DNA of 64,000 nucleotides from Methylobacterium sp. Leaf123. Its GTDB lineage: Bacteria; Pseudomonadota; Alphaproteobacteria; Rhizobiales; Beijerinckiaceae. The translations under genes and the position numbers were made by a program. Positions 3,465 through 24,339 of the stretch are shown here, piece after piece. The notes below the pieces were generated by a model. That model had not been told where the DNA came from, did no database searches, and saw only the letters and a list, made by a program, of their open reading frames with translations. Where the stretch lies: assembly GCF_001423405.1 (NCBI RefSeq), contig NZ_LMNS01000038.1, positions 62,001 through 126,000 of the forward strand, written 5' to 3'. How positions within the stretch are numbered: position 1 is the stretch's first letter; the number at the start of each line of letters is the position of its first letter.

Positions 3465-6152
3465 ATGTCTCAGCCCGCCCCCGATTGCGCCGCGCCCGCG
3501 GTGAAGACGACCTGCCCCTATTGCGGCGTCGGCTGCGGCGTCCTCGCGACCCCGGACGGACAGGGCGGCGTGGCGATCGCGGGCGATCCCGAGCATCCGG
3601 CGAATTTCGGCCGCCTCTGCTCCAAGGGTTCGGCGCTCGGCGAGACGGTCGATCTCGAGGACCGGCTGCTCGCCCCGACCGTCGATGGCCAGACCGTGAC
3701 CTGGGAGGGCGCGCTCGGCACCGTGGCCGGGGGCCTGAGGCGGATCGCCGAGCAGCACGGGCCGGATGCGATCGCCTTCTACCTCTCGGGCCAGATCCTG
3801 ACCGAGGATTACTACGTCGCCAACAAGCTGGCGAAGGGCTTCCTCGGCACGCCGCATGTCGACACCAATTCGCGGCTCTGCATGTCCTCGGCGGTCGCCG
3901 CCCACCGCCGCGCCTTCGGCTCCGACACGGTACCCGGCTGCTACGAGGATCTCGACGAGGCCGACCTGATCGTGCTCGTCGGCTCCAACGCGGCGTGGTG
4001 CCACCCGATCCTGTTCCGCCGCATGGTCGATGCGCGCACCAAGCGCGGCACCAAGATCGTCACCGTCGATCCGCGCCGCACGCAGACCGGCGAGGAGGCC
4101 GACCTGCATCTCGGCCTCCAGCCCGGCACCGATTCCGCGCTGTTCTCCGGCCTGCTCGCCTATCTGGCCGGACAGGCCAAGCTCGACGGGCGCTTCATCG
4201 AGGAGCACACCGCCGGCTTCGAGGGCGCCCTGGAGCGCGCCCGTCAGATCGCGCCGGACGTTGCCGCCACCGCCCGCGCCACGGGTTTGGCCGAGGCCGA
4301 CGTGCAGGCCTTCTTCGAGCTGTTCGCCCGGACGAAGCGGGTCGTCACCGCCTTCAGCCAGGGGGCCAACCAGTCGGCGCAGGGCACCGACAAGGGCAAC
4401 GCCATCATCAACTGCCATCTCGCCACCGGGCGGATCGGCCAGCCGGGCATGGGCCCGCTTTCGCTCACCGGCCAGCCCAACGCCATGGGCGGGCGCGAGG
4501 TCGGCGGCTTGGCCAACATGCTGGCCGCCCACATGCACTTCGCCCCCGAGGAGGTGGACCGGGTGCGCCGCTTCTGGAAGGCGCCCAACATCATCACCGG
4601 CGAGGGCATGAAGGCGGTCGCGCTGTTCGAGGCCATCGAGCGGGGGAAGATCAAGGCGCTGTGGGTGATCGGCACCAACCCGCTCGTCTCGATGCCGCGG
4701 GCCGACCGCATCCGCGAGGCGCTTCATGGGCTCGACCTCTATGTCGTCTCGGAAGCCGTCGCGAACAGCGACAGCGCCTGCGCGACGGGCAAAAAAACCG
4801 TGCTGCTGCCGGCCCTCGCTTGGGGCGAGAAGGACGGCACGGTGACGAATTCCGAGCGCCGCATCTCGCGCCAGCGCGCCTTCCTGAAGGCGCCGGGGCA
4901 GGCGCGGGCCGATTGGGCGATCCTCTGCGACGTCGCCCGCCGCCTCGGCCATGGCGAGGCCTTCGCCTACAATTCCGCCGTCGACATCTTCCGCGAGCAC
5001 GCCGCGCTCTCGGCCTTCGAGAATGAGGGCACCCGCGACTTCGACCTCGGCGGCCTCGCCGAAATCGACCGGCGCGCCTACGACCTGCACCTGCCGATGC
5101 AGTGGCCGGTGCCGAAGCGCGGCCCGGATGCGAAGAAGGGCCGCGCCCGGCTCTTCGCCGATGGGCGCTTCTACACCTTCGATCAACGCGCCCGCTTCGT
5201 CGCCGTGCAGCCGCCCGCGCTGGCGCAGCCCGTGACCGCCGCACGCCCGCAGGTGCTCAACACCGGCCGCATCCGCGACCACTGGCACACCATGACCCGC
5301 ACGGGCAAAAGCCAGCGCCTCTCGGCCCACCGCGCCGTACCTTTCGTCGAAATCCATCCCGACGACGCCGCCCGCTACCGCCTGAACGACGGGGGATTTG
5401 CCCGCGTCGCGACCGATCTCGGCAGCACGATCCTCGAAGTCATGGTGACGGACGCCGTTCTGCCGGGCTCGATCTTCGTGCCGATGCACTGGAGCGACAT
5501 GACCGCCTCGGACGGGCGCGCGGCGGCGCTCGCCCGCGGCATCCCCGATCCGGTCTCGGGCCAGCCCGAACTGAAGGCGACCCCGGCCTCCGTCGAGGCC
5601 GTGGCCTACCGCTCCCGCGGCTACCTGCTGACGCGGGACGCCCAGGCGGCCTCGGCCGGCTGGTGGTGGGCGCGGGCGACCGTCTCCGGCGGCTCGGGCC
5701 TGATCTTCGCGACGCAGGAGGGCTCGCGGGAGATGGCTCTTTCCGTGCGCGGGATGTTCCCCGGCCACGAACTGGCCGAGTACGTCGATCACGCCCGCGG
5801 GCTCTACCGCTGCGCCGTCTATCGCGACGACCGCCTCGTTGCCGCGCTCGCTGTCGCGCCGGGCGACCGGCGGCCGGATTGGGAACTCGCCAAGGGGGTG
5901 TTTGCCGCCCCCGATATCGAGGCGATCGACCGGCGCACCCTGCTCTCGGGCCGGGCGGCGACCGCTTCGGCCGGTCCGGTGGTCTGCGCCTGCCACGGCG
6001 TCGGGCTCGACGTCATCACCGCGACCATCGCCGCCGGGGCCGGCTCGGTCGAGGCGGTGGGTGCGGCCTGCAAGGCAGGAACGAATTGCGGCTCATGCAT
6101 CCCTGAGATCCGCAAGCTCCTGTCGCCGACGCTTGCGCGTAGCGCCGCGTAG
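3465..6152 (+). CDS. nasA: Assimilatory nitrate reductase, catalytic subunit with C-terminal [2Fe-2S] domain
   Basis: An 895-residue molybdenum enzyme predicted to reduce nitrate to nitrite in the cytoplasm. Cys17, Cys20, Cys24 and Cys52 (CPYCGVGC ... LCSKG) bind the N-terminal [4Fe-4S] cluster. Cys139 in RLCMSSAV is the expected molybdenum ligand. The middle carries the molybdopterin oxidoreductase and MGD-binding regions. The last 60 residues (CACHGVG ... CKAGTNCGSC) are a BFD-like [2Fe-2S] domain, an arrangement known from assimilatory Nas enzymes. No signal peptide is present, which argues against periplasmic NapA. The ATG at 3465 gives an N-terminus beginning shortly before the cluster motif. 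cysG follows after 115 bases, fitting a supply of siroheme for nitrite reductase, which is not in the window. Confidence 0.95.
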   Translation: MSQPAPDCAAPAVKTTCPYCGVGCGVLATPDGQGGVAIAGDPEHPANFGRLCSKGSALGETVDLEDRLLAPTVDGQTVTWEGALGTVAGGLRRIAEQHGPDAIAFYLSGQILTEDYYVANKLAKGFLGTPHVDTNSRLCMSSAVAAHRRAFGSDTVPGCYEDLDEADLIVLVGSNAAWCHPILFRRMVDARTKRGTKIVTVDPRRTQTGEEADLHLGLQPGTDSALFSGLLAYLAGQAKLDGRFIEEHTAGFEGALERARQIAPDVAATARATGLAEADVQAFFELFARTKRVVTAFSQGANQSAQGTDKGNAIINCHLATGRIGQPGMGPLSLTGQPNAMGGREVGGLANMLAAHMHFAPEEVDRVRRFWKAPNIITGEGMKAVALFEAIERGKIKALWVIGTNPLVSMPRADRIREALHGLDLYVVSEAVANSDSACATGKKTVLLPALAWGEKDGTVTNSERRISRQRAFLKAPGQARADWAILCDVARRLGHGEAFAYNSAVDIFREHAALSAFENEGTRDFDLGGLAEIDRRAYDLHLPMQWPVPKRGPDAKKGRARLFADGRFYTFDQRARFVAVQPPALAQPVTAARPQVLNTGRIRDHWHTMTRTGKSQRLSAHRAVPFVEIHPDDAARYRLNDGGFARVATDLGSTILEVMVTDAVLPGSIFVPMHWSDMTASDGRAAALARGIPDPVSGQPELKATPASVEAVAYRSRGYLLTRDAQAASAGWWWARATVSGGSGLIFATQEGSREMALSVRGMFPGHELAEYVDHARGLYRCAVYRDDRLVAALAVAPGDRRPDWELAKGVFAAPDIEAIDRRTLLSGRAATASAGPVVCACHGVGLDVITATIAAGAGSVEAVGAACKAGTNCGSCIPEIRKLLSPTLARSAA

Positions 6153-19100: not shown

Positions 19101-20171
19101 ATGTCGCAGCGCGCCTCCGATCTCCTCACCCTGACCCGCGAGGGCCTCTACTGCCCGCTCGGGCGCTTTCACGTCGATCCGACGCATCCCGTCGAGCGGG
19201 CGCTGATCACCCACGGCCATGCCGACCACGCCCGCGCCGGCCACGGCACGGTGCTGGCCACGCCTGAGACCCTGCGGATCATGGCCGTGCGCTACGGCGA
19301 GGACTTTTGTGCCTCGCGCCAGGAGGCGCGGCTCGGCGAACGGATGCGGATCGGCGACGTCACCGTGTTCTTCGCCCCCGCCGGGCATGTGCTGGGATCG
19401 GCGCAGATCGCCATCGAGCGCGAGGGCAAGGGGCCGAGACAGCGCATCGTCGTCTCGGGCGATTACAAGCGCGCCCCCGATCCGACCTGCCTGCCGTTCG
19501 AAGTGGTGCCCTGCGACGTGTTCATCACCGAGGCCACCTTCGGCCTGCCGGTCTTCCGCCATCCCGACACGCGGGGCGAGGTGCGCAAGCTGATCGACTC
19601 GGTGACGCTGTTTCCCGAGCGCGCCCACATCGTCGGCGCCTATGCACTCGGCAAGGCGCAGCGGGTGATGGCGCTGCTGCGCGAGGAGGGCTGGGACCGG
19701 CCGATCCATCTGCACGGGGCGATGGAGAAGCTGACCGAACTCTACAAGCGAGAGGGTGTGCCACTCGGCGAGACGCCGAAGGTGGCGGCCGCCGACCGGA
19801 AGACCCTGCACGGCGCCATCGTGCTCTGTCCCCCTTCCTCGATTCAGGATCTGTGGTCGCGCAAATTCCCCGATCCGGTCACCGCCTTCGCCTCCGGCTG
19901 GATGCGGGTGCGCGCCCGCGCCCGGCAGAAGGGCGTCGAGCTGCCGCTCGTCATCTCCGACCATTCCGACTGGCCGGACCTGTGCCGGACGATCCTCGAT
20001 ACGGGGGCCGAGGAGGTCTGGGTGACGCACGGCCAGGAGGACGCGCTCGTGCATTGGTGCGGCACGCGCGGCATCCGCGCCAAGCCGCTGCATCTGCTCG
20101 GCTACGGCGACGACGGCGAGGCCGAGCCCGATCCGGGACATGATTCGAAGATGGAGGAAGCCTCGTCGTGA
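19101..20171 (+). CDS. Ligase-associated DNA exonuclease (MBL/beta-CASP fold)
   Basis: A 356-residue metallo-beta-lactamase-type nuclease. The metal motif HGHADHARAG (about residues 35-44) and later FFAPAGHVLGSAQI, VVSGDYKRAPDPTC and VISDHSDWPDL fit the mRNA 3'-end processing factor-like exonucleases that occur with ATP-dependent DNA ligases. The next gene, the ligase, starts in a 4-base GTGA overlap, indicating translational coupling. Full ligase cassettes usually also include a DEXH helicase and the PdeM endonuclease, which are absent here. The start ATG at 19101 is the only good one; the frame stays open far upstream but as antisense of the methyltransferase. Confidence 0.92.
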   Translation: MSQRASDLLTLTREGLYCPLGRFHVDPTHPVERALITHGHADHARAGHGTVLATPETLRIMAVRYGEDFCASRQEARLGERMRIGDVTVFFAPAGHVLGSAQIAIEREGKGPRQRIVVSGDYKRAPDPTCLPFEVVPCDVFITEATFGLPVFRHPDTRGEVRKLIDSVTLFPERAHIVGAYALGKAQRVMALLREEGWDRPIHLHGAMEKLTELYKREGVPLGETPKVAAADRKTLHGAIVLCPPSSIQDLWSRKFPDPVTAFASGWMRVRARARQKGVELPLVISDHSDWPDLCRTILDTGAEEVWVTHGQEDALVHWCGTRGIRAKPLHLLGYGDDGEAEPDPGHDSKMEEASS

Positions 20172-22006
20172 ACGACTTCGCCCATCTTCTCGATCGCCTC
20201 GCCTACGAGCCGCGCCGCAACGCCAAGCTGCGCCTGCTCCAGGATTTCTTCGTCGGCACCCCGGACCCGGAGCGCGGCTGGGCGCTCGCCGCCATGACCG
20301 GCGGCCTCACCTTCCGCGAGGCCAAGCCGGCGCTGATCCGCGGGCTGGTGGAAGAGCGGGTCGATCCGGTGCTGTTCGCGCTCTCGCACAATTATGTGGG
20401 CGATCTCGCCGAGACCACGGCGCTGATCTGGCCTGGGCCGGGTGAAAACCCTCCCCCCTCTGCGGGGGAGGGTGCCCGCGGAGCGGGCGGGAGAGGGGCT
20501 GGCGCGGCCTTTCCAGAAGCGTCGCTCCCCTCACCCGCCCCCCTTCGGGGGCCACCCTCTCCCGCAGAGGGGAGAGGGAATGCCGTCGGCCCAGGCCACA
20601 ACAACCCGCCGCCCTCCGTGCCCACCCTCGCCGAAGTCGTCGAAACCCTCGCCACCACCCCGAAGCGCGAACTGCCGCAGCATCTGGCCGGCTGGCTCGA
20701 CGCCCTCGACGAGACCGGGCGCTGGGCGCTGCTCAAGCTCGTCACCGGAAACCTGCGCGTCGGCGTCTCGGCGCGCCTCGCCAAGACGGCGGTCGGCGTG
20801 CTCGGCGGGCACGAGGCGGATGCGGTCGAGGAGGTCTGGCACGGGCTCAAACCGCCCTACACCGAGCTGTTCGCCTGGGTGGAAGGGCGCGGCGAACGGC
20901 CGGAGAGCCGCAACCCGGCCCCGTTCCGCCCCCCGATGCTCTCGCATCCGGTCGAGGAGTTCGAAGACCTCGACAAGCTCGAGCCCGAAGCCTTCTCGGT
21001 GGAGTGGAAATGGGACGGCATCCGCGTCCAGCTCGCGGGCGGGCGCGATGGTCAGGGCCGGCAGGTCCAGAAGGTCTATTCGCGCACCGGCGAGGACATC
21101 TCCGACGCATTCCCCGACCTCGCCGAGGCGATCACCTTCGAGGGTGCGATCGATGGCGAGTTGCTGATCCTGCGTGAGGGGCGCGTCCAGAGCTTCAACG
21201 TGCTCCAGCAGCGGCTCAACCGAAAGGCGGTGACGGGCAAGCTCCTGGACGAGTTCCCTGCCCATATCCGCGCATACGACGTGCTCTCCGCCGAGGGCGA
21301 GGACTTGCGCCCGCTGCCTTTCGCCGAGCGCCGCCCCCGGCTGGAAGCCCTGGTGCAGCGGCTCGATCATGCCCGGATCGACCTCTCGCCGCTCGTCCCC
21401 TTCGCCACCTGGGACGAGGTCGCCGCCGCCCGCGCCGACCCGGCTTCGGCGGGGGCAGGCGCGGATGCCGACGCCATCGAGGGCGTGATGCTGAAGCGGC
21501 TCAACAGCCCCTACCTGCCCGGCCGCCCCAAGGGCCCGTGGTGGAAGTGGAAGCGCGAGCCCTACGTGGTCGATGCGGTGATGATGTACGCCCAGCGCGG
21601 CCACGGGAAGCGCTCGTCCTTCTATTCGGACTACACCTTCGGCTGCTGGCGCGAGGGGGCGGAGGGCGAGGAGCTGGTGCCCGTCGGCAAGGCCTATCAC
21701 GGCTTCACCGATGCCGAGCTGCAAAAGCTCGACCGCTATGTCCGCAACCACACCACCAAGCGCTTCGGCCCGGTGCGCGAGGTCGCCTATGGGCGCGAGG
21801 CCGGGCTGGTGCTGGAGATCGCCTTCGAGGGCGTGCAGCGCTCGACCCGGCACAAATCGGGCGTGGCGATGCGCTTCCCCCGCGTCAGCCGCATCCGCTG
21901 GGATAAGCCGGCGGCGGAGGCCGACCGGGTCGATGTGCTGGAACGGATTCTGGCGCGCGGCGAACGCGAGGTCGCGCCGGGCGCGGCCATGGAGGCATCG
22001 GAATGA
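20168..22006 (+). CDS. ATP-dependent DNA ligase of the ligase-associated exonuclease cassette, carrying a repeat-derived insertion
   Basis: A 612-residue ligase. The adenylation motif EWKWDGIRVQL places the catalytic lysine at residue 281; further motifs include YSRTGEDIS, DGELLILREG and EGVMLKRL, and the OB-fold tail PWWKWKREPYVVDAVM. The N-terminal domain helps DNA binding. Residues about 89-143 are Gly/Pro/Ala low complexity (GAGGRGAGAAFPEAS) that correspond exactly to a 166-bp palindromic element at 20431-20596; without it the sequence runs smoothly from TTALIWPG to PTLAEVVETLA. The frame is kept, and the insertion lies in a linker before the conserved wLDxLD and LKLVTGNLRVG region, so activity may survive. 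The start is GTG 20168. yjbQ begins in a 4-base ATGA overlap. Confidence 0.92.
   Translation: MNDFAHLLDRLAYEPRRNAKLRLLQDFFVGTPDPERGWALAAMTGGLTFREAKPALIRGLVEERVDPVLFALSHNYVGDLAETTALIWPGPGENPPPSAGEGARGAGGRGAGAAFPEASLPSPAPLRGPPSPAEGRGNAVGPGHNNPPPSVPTLAEVVETLATTPKRELPQHLAGWLDALDETGRWALLKLVTGNLRVGVSARLAKTAVGVLGGHEADAVEEVWHGLKPPYTELFAWVEGRGERPESRNPAPFRPPMLSHPVEEFEDLDKLEPEAFSVEWKWDGIRVQLAGGRDGQGRQVQKVYSRTGEDISDAFPDLAEAITFEGAIDGELLILREGRVQSFNVLQQRLNRKAVTGKLLDEFPAHIRAYDVLSAEGEDLRPLPFAERRPRLEALVQRLDHARIDLSPLVPFATWDEVAAARADPASAGAGADADAIEGVMLKRLNSPYLPGRPKGPWWKWKREPYVVDAVMMYAQRGHGKRSSFYSDYTFGCWREGAEGEELVPVGKAYHGFTDAELQKLDRYVRNHTTKRFGPVREVAYGREAGLVLEIAFEGVQRSTRHKSGVAMRFPRVSRIRWDKPAAEADRVDVLERILARGEREVAPGAAMEASE
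20431..20596. repeat. 166-bp palindromic repeat inside the DNA ligase gene
   Basis: The ends GCCTGGGCCG (20431-20440) and CGGCCCAGGC (20587-20596) are exact inverted repeats. Inside them, two arms of about 55 bases are inverted copies of each other (CCCTCCCCCCTCTGCGGGGG near 20450 and its counterpart near 20570), separated by about 25 unique bases. The structure is like a small non-autonomous mobile repeat. It is read through in frame by the ligase gene. A short related fragment, CCCTCTCCCGCCAAGGG, occurs between the thiolase and acyl-CoA dehydrogenase genes near 29880. Confidence 0.8.
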
Positions 22007-22473
22007 GGCAATCTGGAAAGATCGGGCCGCTCGAAGACTTCTCGGCCGGGGACGTGACGCGGCAGGCGAGTGCGCGGGTGACGGTCGCGACGCCCGGCCC
22101 CGGCTTCACGGAGATCACCGAGGCGGTGGCGGGTTTCGTCGCGGAGAGCGACCTCCGCTCCGGCCTCGTCAGCGTGTTCTGCCGGCACACCTCGGCCTCG
22201 CTGACGATCCAGGAGAACGCCGACCCGGATGTGCGCGTCGATCTGATGACCGCGCTGGACGGCTTCGCGCCCCGCCACGGGCAGTATGTCCACGGCATGG
22301 AGGGGCCGGACGACATGCCCGCCCATATCCGCACGATGGTGACCGATTCGGGCCTCACCATCCCCCTGCGCGACGGTCGCCTCGCCCTGGGCACGTGGCA
22401 GGGGATCTACCTGATCGAGCACCGCGACCGCGGCCATCGGCGGGAGATCGTGCTGCACGTCGTCGGTGCGTGA
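22003..22473 (+). CDS. YjbQ family protein (UPF0047, secondary thiamine-phosphate synthase-like)
   Basis: A 156-residue UPF0047 protein with the family signature CRHTSASLTIQENADPDV and HIRTMVTDSGLTIPL, GTWQGIYLIEHRD. Members complement thiE mutants weakly and some are annotated as secondary thiamine-phosphate synthases; the true substrate is unclear. ATG 22003 overlaps the ligase stop by 4 bases, so it is the third gene of the coupled exonuclease-ligase-yjbQ unit. Its last 60 bases (22414-22473) are repeated 1.35 kb downstream (23827-23886), on the far side of the AT-rich DUF2235 islet. Confidence 0.9.
   Translation: MRQSGKIGPLEDFSAGDVTRQASARVTVATPGPGFTEITEAVAGFVAESDLRSGLVSVFCRHTSASLTIQENADPDVRVDLMTALDGFAPRHGQYVHGMEGPDDMPAHIRTMVTDSGLTIPLRDGRLALGTWQGIYLIEHRDRGHRREIVLHVVGA
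22414..22473 (+). repeat. att-like direct repeat, left copy (3' end of yjbQ)
   Basis: These 60 bases match 23827-23886 at 53 positions; a core of 24 bases (22427-22450 and 23840-23863) is identical. The copy ends at the yjbQ TGA. Position at the 3' end of a conserved gene, with foreign-looking DNA between the copies, is typical of an integration site. Confidence 0.8.
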
Positions 22474-23826
22474 GAGGAAATTTTATTACATAAGTTGGGG
22501 CGGGAAGTCTTGATACTTGACGCCGAGCTTTTCTAGCATCAGAAGTTGTGGCGGGCTTTTATTTTAGAGAATTTGACATGAAACGTTTAATATTCTTGTT
22601 CGACGGGACGTGGAATTCTGCAGCAACCGGCCGATTTGTGGACATAACAAATATATTTCGCATGAACTTGGCAATAAGCCGAAGTGCCACTCCCGATATC
22701 CCACAAATAACATTTTATGCGCCCGGCCCTGGAAACAGAGGAGTATTTGACAAAGAAATGGGTGGATTATTTGGCCAGGGCCTAGATCAAATTATTCGGG
22801 AGGCATATGTAAATCTAAGCTCCAATTATGAAGATCATGACGAAATATTAATATTCGGATATTCTCGTGGAAGCATTGCTGCACGAGCTCTTACTTGTTT
22901 GATTGCGGAATCAGGACTGCTAAAGCCTCAGCAACTACATAGGCTTGCATCCGTGTGGAATCGGTTTATCGACATAAATTCCGGAAAGATTTCCTCTGAA
23001 CATCCGTCTGAGGTTCACAGCCACGTACATCGCAACGTGCGCATCAAGTTCGTTGGCTTATTCGATAGTGTGCTCGGGCGCGGACACAAATCTCCAAATC
23101 GATTTTCCCAACTTGTTTTTAAAAACAATACGGTTAGCCCAATAGTCGACAGGGGAGTCCACATTCTTTCAATCGATGACAATAAAAAAATTTTCAAGCC
23201 GATGATTTGGGGTGCAAGAGAAAGCAAGCAGAAAATCGAGCAAATTTGGATGCCTGGCGTTCACAGCGACATAGGCGGCTATGGAGTTCCTAATTTGATT
23301 GGAATATCTTCACTCTTGACGATGATTTCCAAGGTAAAATCTACTGGTGTAGCTTTCAATCAACACTTTCTCGATGCAATGATACGAAAAATTGAAGAAG
23401 TCAACAATATGGAAATTAGATCAGAGCGTGAAGATATTTTCGGGAAAATCTTACGCTCAGCCTGTCGTACACCAGGCGACTCGCAACACTTGGAGAAGAA
23501 ACACCCTTTACTAGATGCCATCTATAACAAAAAGTTCATAGTCAAACGCAGAAGAAGAGCATACAACCATAAATATCTCTCTCCGTTTTTAGAACTTGAG
23601 CCAGAGAAAAATGAGTATACAGATTTGATCATAAATAGTGTCGAGGCAGCAATAGCGCGCACATAGTTAGCTATATTGACATTTTGGCTTAAAAAAACTT
23701 AACAGTGCGGGCTGTGCCAATATTAGTGCGGCCCGAAAACCATCTGCCGAGTACATTTGCACGATAATAATCGATACAATCCCGATGATCGCTTGATATT
23801 TACAAAACAATATATGCATGAGTGTG
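22474..23826 (+). mobile_element. AT-rich genomic islet at the yjbQ 3' end
   Basis: The 1.35 kb between the two yjbQ-end repeats is about 40% GC by eye (one line has only 18 G/C of 60), against roughly 70% around it, and codon choice inside changes accordingly (AAA, ATA, AAT, TTA frequent). It holds one gene (DUF2235) and 160 bases without a recognised feature after it. No integrase, transposase or terminal inverted repeat is present. It is best read as the remains of an integrated element or a cargo gene left behind; this is inference from base composition plus repeats. Confidence 0.7.
22578..23666 (+). CDS. DUF2235 alpha/beta-hydrolase (Tle1-like phospholipase fold)
   Basis: A 362-residue protein. 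LFDGTWN at residues 7-13 and TNIFR follow the usual DUF2235 start. The nucleophile elbow IFGYSRGSIAAR gives Ser96; FVGLFDSVLG offers Asp163, and IWMPGVHSDIGG gives His229, the expected Ser-Asp-His triad. DUF2235 includes the type VI secretion phospholipase effector Tle1 but also many stand-alone proteins of unknown role. No VgrG, PAAR or immunity gene is adjacent and there is no signal peptide or membrane helix, so a cytoplasmic hydrolase is as likely as an effector. Start is ATG 22578; GTG 22548 would add ten residues. Base composition and codons are foreign to the region. Confidence 0.85.
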   Translation: MKRLIFLFDGTWNSAATGRFVDITNIFRMNLAISRSATPDIPQITFYAPGPGNRGVFDKEMGGLFGQGLDQIIREAYVNLSSNYEDHDEILIFGYSRGSIAARALTCLIAESGLLKPQQLHRLASVWNRFIDINSGKISSEHPSEVHSHVHRNVRIKFVGLFDSVLGRGHKSPNRFSQLVFKNNTVSPIVDRGVHILSIDDNKKIFKPMIWGARESKQKIEQIWMPGVHSDIGGYGVPNLIGISSLLTMISKVKSTGVAFNQHFLDAMIRKIEEVNNMEIRSEREDIFGKILRSACRTPGDSQHLEKKHPLLDAIYNKKFIVKRRRRAYNHKYLSPFLELEPEKNEYTDLIINSVEAAIART

Positions 23827-23886
23827 GTCGAGCACGGTAACCGCGGCCATCGGCGGGAGATCGCGCTGCACGCCGTCGGCGCGTGA
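23827..23886 (+). repeat. att-like direct repeat, right copy (second yjbQ 3' end)
   Basis: This copy keeps the yjbQ reading frame to its own TGA and would encode a C-terminus with five changed residues out of 19 (VEHGNRGHRREIALHAVGA). Five of the six changed codons are non-synonymous, so it is more likely a tail from a different yjbQ allele than a slowly drifting duplicate. GC content returns to the genomic level within it. Confidence 0.8.
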
Positions 23887-23892
23887 TCCGTT

Positions 23893-24339
23893 TCAGCGCC
23901 GGATCAGGATCACGCCGCCGACGAGCAGGGCGACGCCGATCAGACGCGGACCGTCGAGAGGGCGCTGGGCGAGACCCATCCAGCCGAAATGATCGAAGGT
24001 GACCGAGGCGAACATCTGCCCGGCCACGAGCAGCGCGATGAAGGCCGCCGCACCGAGCTGCGGCACGAGGACGATGGCCAGGCCGATGAAGAGCGCGCCG
24101 AACAGGCCCCCGCTCCAGGCCCACCACGGCACCCGCGCCGCCACGCTCGCCGCAGGCAGGGGATCGCGCAGGGCCAGAGCGAGCAGCGCCATGCAGGCGA
24201 GGCCGGCGGCGTAGCTGGCAAAACCGGCCCAGGCCGCGGAGCCGAGATCGGCGCGCAGGCGGGCATTCAGCACCTGCTGGACGACGATGCTGACGCCCGC
24301 CGCGACGGCGAGGAGGGAAGGGAGCAGGAGACGGAGCAT
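23893..24339 (-). CDS. DMT family transporter, DUF606/YdcZ type
   Basis: A 148-residue protein with five hydrophobic segments: an N-terminal helix with QQVLNARLRADLGS after it, then FASYAAGLACMALLAL, WAWSGGLFGALFIGLAIVLV, AFIALLVAGQMFASVTFDHFGW and a C-terminal RLIGVALLVGGVILIRR. The pattern matches the half-size DUF606 members of the drug/metabolite transporter superfamily, which may act as dimers. The substrate is unknown. It is convergent with the DUF2235 islet, its stop lying 6 bases beyond the right repeat. Confidence 0.88.
   Translation of the reverse strand: MLRLLLPSLLAVAAGVSIVVQQVLNARLRADLGSAAWAGFASYAAGLACMALLALALRDPLPAASVAARVPWWAWSGGLFGALFIGLAIVLVPQLGAAAFIALLVAGQMFASVTFDHFGWMGLAQRPLDGPRLIGVALLVGGVILIRR

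What the first reader, a model, noticed from the sequence alone, without database searches (positions are those of the whole stretch)
22414..23886. AT-rich single-gene islet bounded by direct copies of the yjbQ 3' end
Seen: 60 bases at the end of yjbQ (22414-22473) recur at 23827-23886 with 53 matches and a 24-base identical core. The DNA between them is about 40% GC in a roughly 70% GC neighbourhood and carries one gene, a DUF2235 alpha/beta-hydrolase. Known: integrases often use the 3' end of conserved genes as att sites and leave such duplications. Inference: the yjbQ 3' end is an integration site, and this is a minimal or decayed element. No integrase remains, so mobility would have to come from elsewhere, or the flanks arose by recombination with another yjbQ allele.
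Basis: partly seen in the sequence, partly recalled or inferred. Interest (0 to 1): 0.78.

Follow-up and report, generated by a model that had tools for sequence, protein, structure and literature searches.

The report
Single-gene islet inserted into yjbQ end
A small AT-rich DNA islet carrying one lipase-like gene was spliced into the end of a conserved bacterial gene by site-specific recombination, at a gene where several related species carry anti-virus defence genes instead.

Summary
62 nt at the yjbQ 3' end (22412-22473) recur at 23825-23886, 89% identical with a 24-nt identical core. The DNA between is 0.39-0.45 GC in a 0.63-0.75 GC neighbourhood and holds one intact gene, a Tle1-like/DUF2235 hydrolase. 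Near relatives have an empty, contiguous site, and the two copies are reciprocal chimeras: left of the core the yjbQ copy is native and the second copy foreign; right of it the reverse. One crossover inside the core explains this, giving attL and attR. No recombinase gene is left in the islet. Of 109 genus loci read, 7 (window included) have a second yjbQ 3' fragment downstream and 2 more show an insertion at the yjbQ end. Seven of those 8 other loci carry genes with PADLOC defence models: AbiL (two), AbiU, DarTG, GajA/B, an NsnA-like gene, a III-A retron; G047 shows none. Recombinases remain in three (G071, G042, G091). The window islet is best read as an integrase-less, att-bounded remnant at a recurrent landing site. 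Its gene is a candidate solo defence gene, by association only; a T6SS role is unlikely, as the genome has no sheath gene.

The parts
22003..22473 (+). yjbQ (UPF0047, secondary thiamine-phosphate synthase family), 156 aa; target gene, its last 23 nt read as element-derived
   Evidence: Pfam PF01894 E 3e-40, TIGR00149 E 4e-40; 93% DNA identity to G014; polarity
22412..22473 (+). attL: yjbQ 3' end, host-derived left of the core, element-derived right of it
22427..22450 (+). 24-nt identical core, copy 1 (crossover lies inside it)
   Evidence: contains CCGC-N8-GCGG, which may be chance
22474..22577 (+). AT-rich leader of the islet; one weak promoter-like match 22510-22539, not above the shuffled expectation
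22578..23666 (+). Tle1-like/DUF2235 alpha/beta-hydrolase, 362 aa, with S96, D163, H229 of the presumed triad
   Evidence: PF09994 E 2e-52; the three residues invariant in 15 aligned sequences; AlphaFold model pLDDT 75.7, best PDB match 6sjl (Tle1), TM-score 0.35
23667..23824 (.). AT-rich right arm of the islet; no recombinase reading frame seen
23825..23886 (+). attR: displaced yjbQ 3' end, element-derived left of the core, host-derived right of it
23840..23863 (+). 24-nt identical core, copy 2
23893..24339 (-). native downstream neighbour, YdcZ-family exporter; its DNA directly follows yjbQ at empty sites of the nearest relatives
   Evidence: PF04657 E 3e-40

Best explanation
The islet between the two cores (22427-23863) is an integrase-less element bounded by att sites. 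A circular DNA whose attP carried a divergent yjbQ 3' end recombined with attB in the last 60 nt of yjbQ. A single crossover inside the 24-nt core gave yjbQ a new, in-frame 3' end and displaced the old one to 23825-23886. The enzyme was most likely a tyrosine integrase acting in trans or since deleted. The cargo, a lone Tle1-like hydrolase, is most likely an anti-phage or toxin-type gene like other cargo found at this gene. Shown: the repeat, its reciprocal chimerism, empty sites in relatives, genes with defence models and recombinases at the same gene in other species, and no recombinase in the islet. Inferred: the enzyme class, the circular form, movement in trans, and the cargo's function (for which alone I would give about 0.4).
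For: Polarity: at the four differing positions left of the core, 12, 12, 11 and 12 of the 12 best-matching unsplit relatives share the base of the yjbQ copy; right of the core 12 of 12 share the remnant's base at one site, 6 of 12 (the other 6 a third base, none the yjbQ copy's) at another, and one site splits 6:6. The nearest relative G014 fits at all seven; its last 24 nt equal the remnant's. Empty site: joined flanks align to G014, 91.4% over 861 nt, 0 gaps. Same gene, other cargo, PADLOC models: AbiLi/AbiLii in G062 and G001, DarT/DarG in G006, GajA/GajB in G091, NsnA and PD-T4-2_A in G058, RT_III-A and PRTase_III-A in G042, AbiU in G071. Same junction, judged by eye: the foreign 3' ends of G058 yjbQ and of the decayed yjbQ piece of G001 begin right after the GARATC of the REI codons. 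Recombinases: a large serine recombinase 40 nt after the truncated yjbQ in G071 and a related one beside the displaced fragment in G042; a tyrosine integrase 558 nt after the yjbQ stop in G091, where synteny with relatives ends at the stop. Mobile cargo: of 38 homologue loci examined, the four best by E-value (L229, L230, L231, L260) have gene GC 43-51%, mostly in 62-68% GC flanks (exceptions L231 upstream 48, L229 downstream 53); the other 34 have 56-71%.
Against: No recombinase for this core was identified: the genome's 19 Phage_integrase stretches lie elsewhere and no att-like DNA lies in the loci around them, about 1.5 kb each side. yjbQ DNA finds in this genome only yjbQ, the remnant and one unrelated short hit. 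One of the seven sites is uninformative across relatives. In G091 no second copy was found in about 30 kb, and relatives' downstream DNA was not found in that genome beyond short dispersed matches, so it could be a rearrangement. No strain of the same species could be compared. PADLOC and NCBIfam have no match for the hydrolase, and the defence reading rests on the company of other cargo; I ran no background control for defence genes near unoccupied sites.
Confidence: 0.78

Rival explanations
1. Allelic replacement: homologous recombination with donor DNA carrying an islet downstream of its own yjbQ brought in the islet together with parts of the donor's yjbQ ends.
For: The flanks are conserved genes; transduction and recombination through conserved flanks is suggested for cDHS1 of Pseudomonas aeruginosa (PMC10250203, passages).
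Against: Both crossovers would have to fall inside the same 24 nt, one in each copy; yjbQ left of the core shows no raised divergence from G014, and DNA right of attR aligns normally to relatives. It also only moves the question to the donor.
Confidence: 0.13
2. Old tandem duplication of the yjbQ 3' end, or a target-site duplication by a transposon, with later gene gain between the copies.
For: Two direct copies flank the islet.
Against: Both copies would then be native with differences spread at random; instead they sort left and right of the core. A 62-nt target duplication would be far longer than usual (recalled), and one search lists no inverted repeat pairing the islet ends, no transposase-like frame that I recognised.
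Confidence: 0.05
3. The hydrolase is a type VI secretion effector that was dropped at this site (a rival about the cargo, compatible with the insertion).
For: Pfam PF09994 and the closest named folds are Tle1-type; many of the 30 papers listed for DUF2235 concern T6SS effectors (listing only).
Against: The host genome has no VipB/TssC sheath gene, nor have 3 of the 4 hosts of the closest homologues (G008, G023, G752); G010 has (the only T6SS marker tested). The islet has no second gene that could be an immunity gene.
Confidence: 0.1

Closest known systems
CIME (cis-mobilizable element; decayed ICE/IME keeping attL and attR), as described in PMC5704250 (passages)
   Same: Bounded by attL and attR at the 3' end of a gene; no integration or transfer genes.
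   Different: Descent from an ICE or IME and mobilisation were not tested; only one gene remains.
Core defence hotspots cDHS1/cDHS2 of Pseudomonas aeruginosa (PMC10250203, passages)
   Same: One chromosomal site with varied anti-phage cargo; 29% and 47% of those sites have no detectable mobile gene.
   Different: Those sites lie by a tRNA or tmRNA gene and are occupied in most isolates; here the target is a protein-coding gene with two apparent att positions, occupied in 9 of 109 loci.
tmRNA-targeting tyrosine-integrase islands with defence genes (PMC12595487, passages)
   Same: Direct repeats of a gene's end, defence cargo, no transfer genes; G091 has the integrase too.
   Different: Those keep their integrase; the window islet has none, and the target is yjbQ.
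SCC elements of staphylococci (ccr serine recombinases at rlmH; recalled)
   Same: The G071 recombinase weakly matches the CcrB model (33.8 bits, cut-off 900) and XisF (43.2, cut-off 375); recombinase-less forms exist (recalled).
   Different: That is site A; the window islet uses the other site, and its genome has no Recombinase-domain match (PF07508).
Tle1 phospholipase family (PDB 6sjl, 9j3f)
   Same: Catalytic-domain family and S/D/H positions; top fold match.
   Different: 362 aa, 14-17% identity and TM-scores 0.35-0.47 with rmsd 6.5-10 A in the fold matches; no T6SS sheath gene in the genome.

Membership tests
Site-specific element integrated at a gene 3' end | Direct repeats of the gene's 3' end at both boundaries | tested here: met
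Site-specific element integrated at a gene 3' end | Reciprocal host/element chimeras in attL and attR relative to empty sites | tested here: met
   6 of 7 sites informative across 12 relatives and all 6 fit; 7 of 7 fit against G014
Site-specific element integrated at a gene 3' end | Own integrase gene | tested here: not met
   only the hydrolase and short frames inside
CIME | attL and attR kept, integration and transfer genes lost | tested here: met
CIME | Derived from an ICE/IME and mobilised by an integrated partner | not testable with these tools
   no partner element found at yjbQ in this genome
T6SS Tle1 effector | Tle1-like catalytic domain with Ser/Asp/His | tested here: met
   (which residues form the triad is recalled)
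T6SS Tle1 effector | T6SS in the host | tested here: not met
   no PF05943 match in G000 (the control rang in E. coli only, 1 of 14)
T6SS Tle1 effector | Cognate immunity gene next to it | tested here: not met
   single gene in the islet
Described anti-phage systems (PADLOC-DB 2.0.0) | Match to a system model | tested here: not met
   0 families at E up to 1
Anti-phage defence gene | Protects against phage | not testable with these tools
   needs plaque assays

The most novel reading that the evidence does not exclude
An AT-rich, mobile subfamily of stand-alone Tle1-like hydrolases is an undescribed single-gene anti-phage system that acts inside the cell on its own membrane. It spreads in minimal att-bounded cassettes moved by integrases supplied in trans, with yjbQ as one of its landing sites in Methylobacterium.
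Probability: 0.3. Interest if true: 0.72.

Novelty: new member of a known kind. Interest (0 to 1): 0.52.

Why it matters
It adds a protein-coding gene, yjbQ, to the landing sites of defence islands, with two att positions that appear to serve two recombinase classes. One gene then offers islands with recombinases, islets that keep att sites but show no recombinase, and empty sites for comparison. It also points to a lipase-fold gene worth testing as a solo defence gene. I found no paper that names yjbQ as an integration site: searches (15 of 646 listed, none with yjbQ; 4 papers; 2; 2), listings only except passages of PMC3091646 and PMC7877592, which concern thiamine metabolism and a polysaccharide locus. 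The library holds open-licence papers only.

Tried and rejected
Site A as the insertion point of the window islet: rejected, since yjbQ from nt 298 to 438 is not more divergent from G014 than the rest and the remnant covers only nt 410-471. A phage source: no phage record held the hydrolase or the right end of the islet; yjbQ DNA gave 9 weak phage records, the best covering 28% of it; three viral-contig scans found nothing. Plasmids hold only distant hydrolase relatives, all 106 records under 60% identity. Repeats around the other AT-rich hydrolase genes (L248, L249, L250, L279): none convincing; one 16-nt pair, 81% alike, lies on either side of the L279 gene, within chance. Family-wide yjbQ search: 198 of 298 genomes match; the row list was cut, several genomes have 2-3 matches that I did not examine, and flanks were not read, so the site outside the genus is open. 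Of the 80 named yjbQ loci kept (582 matched), only L019, on a contig of the same length as the G006 contig, has a second fragment, and none matches the G091 or G071 recombinases. A second yjbQ copy in G058 and the right end of G091 were not found. Loci were read to about 15 kb downstream for most genomes, so longer islands could be missed there.

Full report
OBSERVATION. The repeat is real: 22412-22473 and 23825-23886, 62 nt, 89% identical, identical over 24 nt. GC falls to 0.39-0.45 between the copies and is 0.63-0.75 around them. The only substantial gene inside is 22578-23666 (+); other open frames there are short. The self-match of the yjbQ end scores 44.5, against at most 35.5 for 1471 random 75-mers of the window, at most 17 for a control piece of yjbQ in the genus loci, and at most 18 for yjbQ ends of loci without a known insertion.

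EMPTY SITES AND POLARITY. The window lies in a genome related to Methylobacterium/Methylorubrum (named relatives; the genome itself is unnamed). 111 genus genomes were searched with yjbQ DNA and 110 matched. I read 109 loci, the window included; left out were G108 (no match) and G078 (a 25-nt stray match). 98 of the 109 have at least 5 kb downstream. In the nearest relatives one yjbQ end is followed directly by the DNA that in the window follows the second copy (six aligned). The window's joined flanks align to G014 over 861 nt without a gap. The seven differences between the copies sort by side. At the four on the left, 12, 12, 11 and 12 of 12 relatives share the base of the yjbQ copy. On the right, one site points the other way in 12 of 12, one in 6 of 12 with none for the yjbQ copy, and one is split 6:6; the nearest relative fits at all seven. 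One crossover inside the core leaves exactly this: host|element at attL and element|host at attR. yjbQ stays open and 156 aa long.

THE SAME GENE IN OTHER SPECIES. Seven of 109 loci have a second yjbQ 3' fragment downstream: the window, G071, G042, G062, G047, G001, G006. Two more show an insertion without a second copy found: in G058 the last codons of yjbQ are AT-rich and foreign; in G091 synteny with relatives ends at the yjbQ stop (between -1 and +5 in G074, G009, G054, G052) with a tyrosine integrase 558 nt on. I scanned chosen proteins of these 8 other loci, not all their frames. PADLOC models matched in 7 of 8: AbiLi/AbiLii in G062 and G001; DarT/DarG in G006; GajA/GajB, the Gabija pair, in G091; NsnA and PD-T4-2_A in G058, with a partner that reaches the HEPN_RiboL-PSP model only below its cut-off; RT_III-A, PRTase_III-A and a caspase in G042; AbiU, Pfam AIPR, in G071. 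In G047 the two scanned frames gave no defence model, one being a LysR regulator, and its insert has normal GC. In G071 four of the five scanned cargo proteins had no PADLOC match. A 1-kb block under 50% GC lies at 0-1 kb after yjbQ in 4 of 109 loci and in the 1 kb before it in 0 of 108; the 1-2 kb bin holds 4 of 109 and later bins 0-3. That is a modest enrichment, and I ran no background scan for defence genes at unoccupied sites.

TWO ATT POSITIONS. In G071, G042, G062 and G047 the break lies at about nt 285-309 of yjbQ, in the EGPDD codons (site A). Two related serine recombinases, 53% identical over 321 residues, lie 40 nt after the truncated yjbQ in G071 and beside the displaced fragment in G042; the G042 frame is shorter, lacks the zinc-ribbon match and may be broken. 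In G062 a 27-residue stretch, 52% identical to the start of the G042 enzyme, lies by the remnant; this is weak, but it suggests that the G062 islet lost its recombinase. By eye, the element side of attL shares a CAAAG motif in G071, G042, G062, G047 and G006, and G071 shows near-inverted arms on the two sides. The window uses site B; G058 and the decayed yjbQ piece of G001 break at the same REI codons (by eye). G091 is the only locus where I saw a tyrosine integrase beside yjbQ; it is the reason I favour that class for site B, but its att ends were not defined.

THE CARGO GENE. Pfam places it in the Tle1-like catalytic family (E 2e-52); NCBIfam and PADLOC have no match. S96, D163 and H229 are invariant in the 15 aligned sequences; that they form the triad is recalled. 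The AlphaFold model is moderate (pLDDT 75.7, pTM 0.84). Its five PDB matches under E 0.001 are Tle1 (6sjl), two chains of 4o5p (listed as uncharacterised; Tle1 by recall), 4m0m (a Legionella protein of unknown function) and TleB (9j3f), with TM-scores of only 0.35-0.47. The genome has no VipB/TssC sheath gene, so a T6SS role here is unlikely. Of 38 homologue loci from the genus and order searches (genus loci were capped), the four best by E-value are AT-rich genes, mostly in GC-rich surroundings, and the other 34 are not. One sits beside a FRG-domain gene (L248), one in a small AT-rich run of frames (L250), and two stand alone in their AT-rich stretch (L249, L279). Of five plasmid neighbourhoods looked at, one (Hymenobacter) lies near an ABC-three-component system; the others showed a lysozyme, a peptidoglycan-binding protein, transposases, or were unannotated. 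This supports mobile cargo, perhaps of a conflict type; the function is not shown.

WHAT IS NOT SHOWN. The enzyme is unknown. The genome has 19 Phage_integrase stretches and no Recombinase-domain match. Only one of those loci matches the G091 integrase, at 30% identity (L288), and no att-like DNA lies in any of the 19 loci. Within-species variation could not be examined. Literature: no listing or passage reported yjbQ as an integration site. For PMC12595487, PMC5704250 and PMC10250203 I saw only passages.

VERDICT. The kind of element is known; the site and the solo hydrolase appear to be new members. After rechecking, I set the confidence at 0.78 because the cargo part rests on association; the insertion itself I hold at about 0.85.

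Noticed in passing
L114-L121 (G062, G071, G042, G047, G006), yjbQ about nt 285-309: A second apparent att position in yjbQ (site A), with large serine recombinases in G071 and G042. In G042, G062, G047 and G006 the rebuilt yjbQ encodes 171-172 aa; in G071 it is truncated.
   Followed up: partly
L228 (G095); also L224 (G051), L123 (G050), L225 (G030): yjbQ of 172 aa without a detected second copy; G095 carries the same kind of extra codons (LQSR...YVHS) as occupied site A loci, perhaps a scar of a lost element.
   Followed up: no
L132 (G077) 1-177: The contig begins at about nt 297 of yjbQ, close to site A; either an att junction at an assembly break or chance.
   Followed up: no
L221 (G091): GajA/GajB in DNA that starts at the yjbQ stop with a tyrosine integrase; further large frames follow and its right end was not found.
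   Followed up: partly
L120 (G001), about 5762-6009 in reversed orientation: Besides an intact yjbQ there is a decayed second yjbQ piece that breaks at site B, followed by an AbiL pair: possibly stacked insertions.
   Followed up: partly
window 20168-22006: The ATP-dependent DNA ligase frame holds a Pro/Gly/Ala-rich stretch (about codons 93-150) that looks like an in-frame repeat insertion.
   Followed up: no
L002, L251 (G000:C37 149129-150004): A second Tle1-like gene in the same genome, 38% identical over residues 2-118, in DNA of ordinary GC.
   Followed up: no
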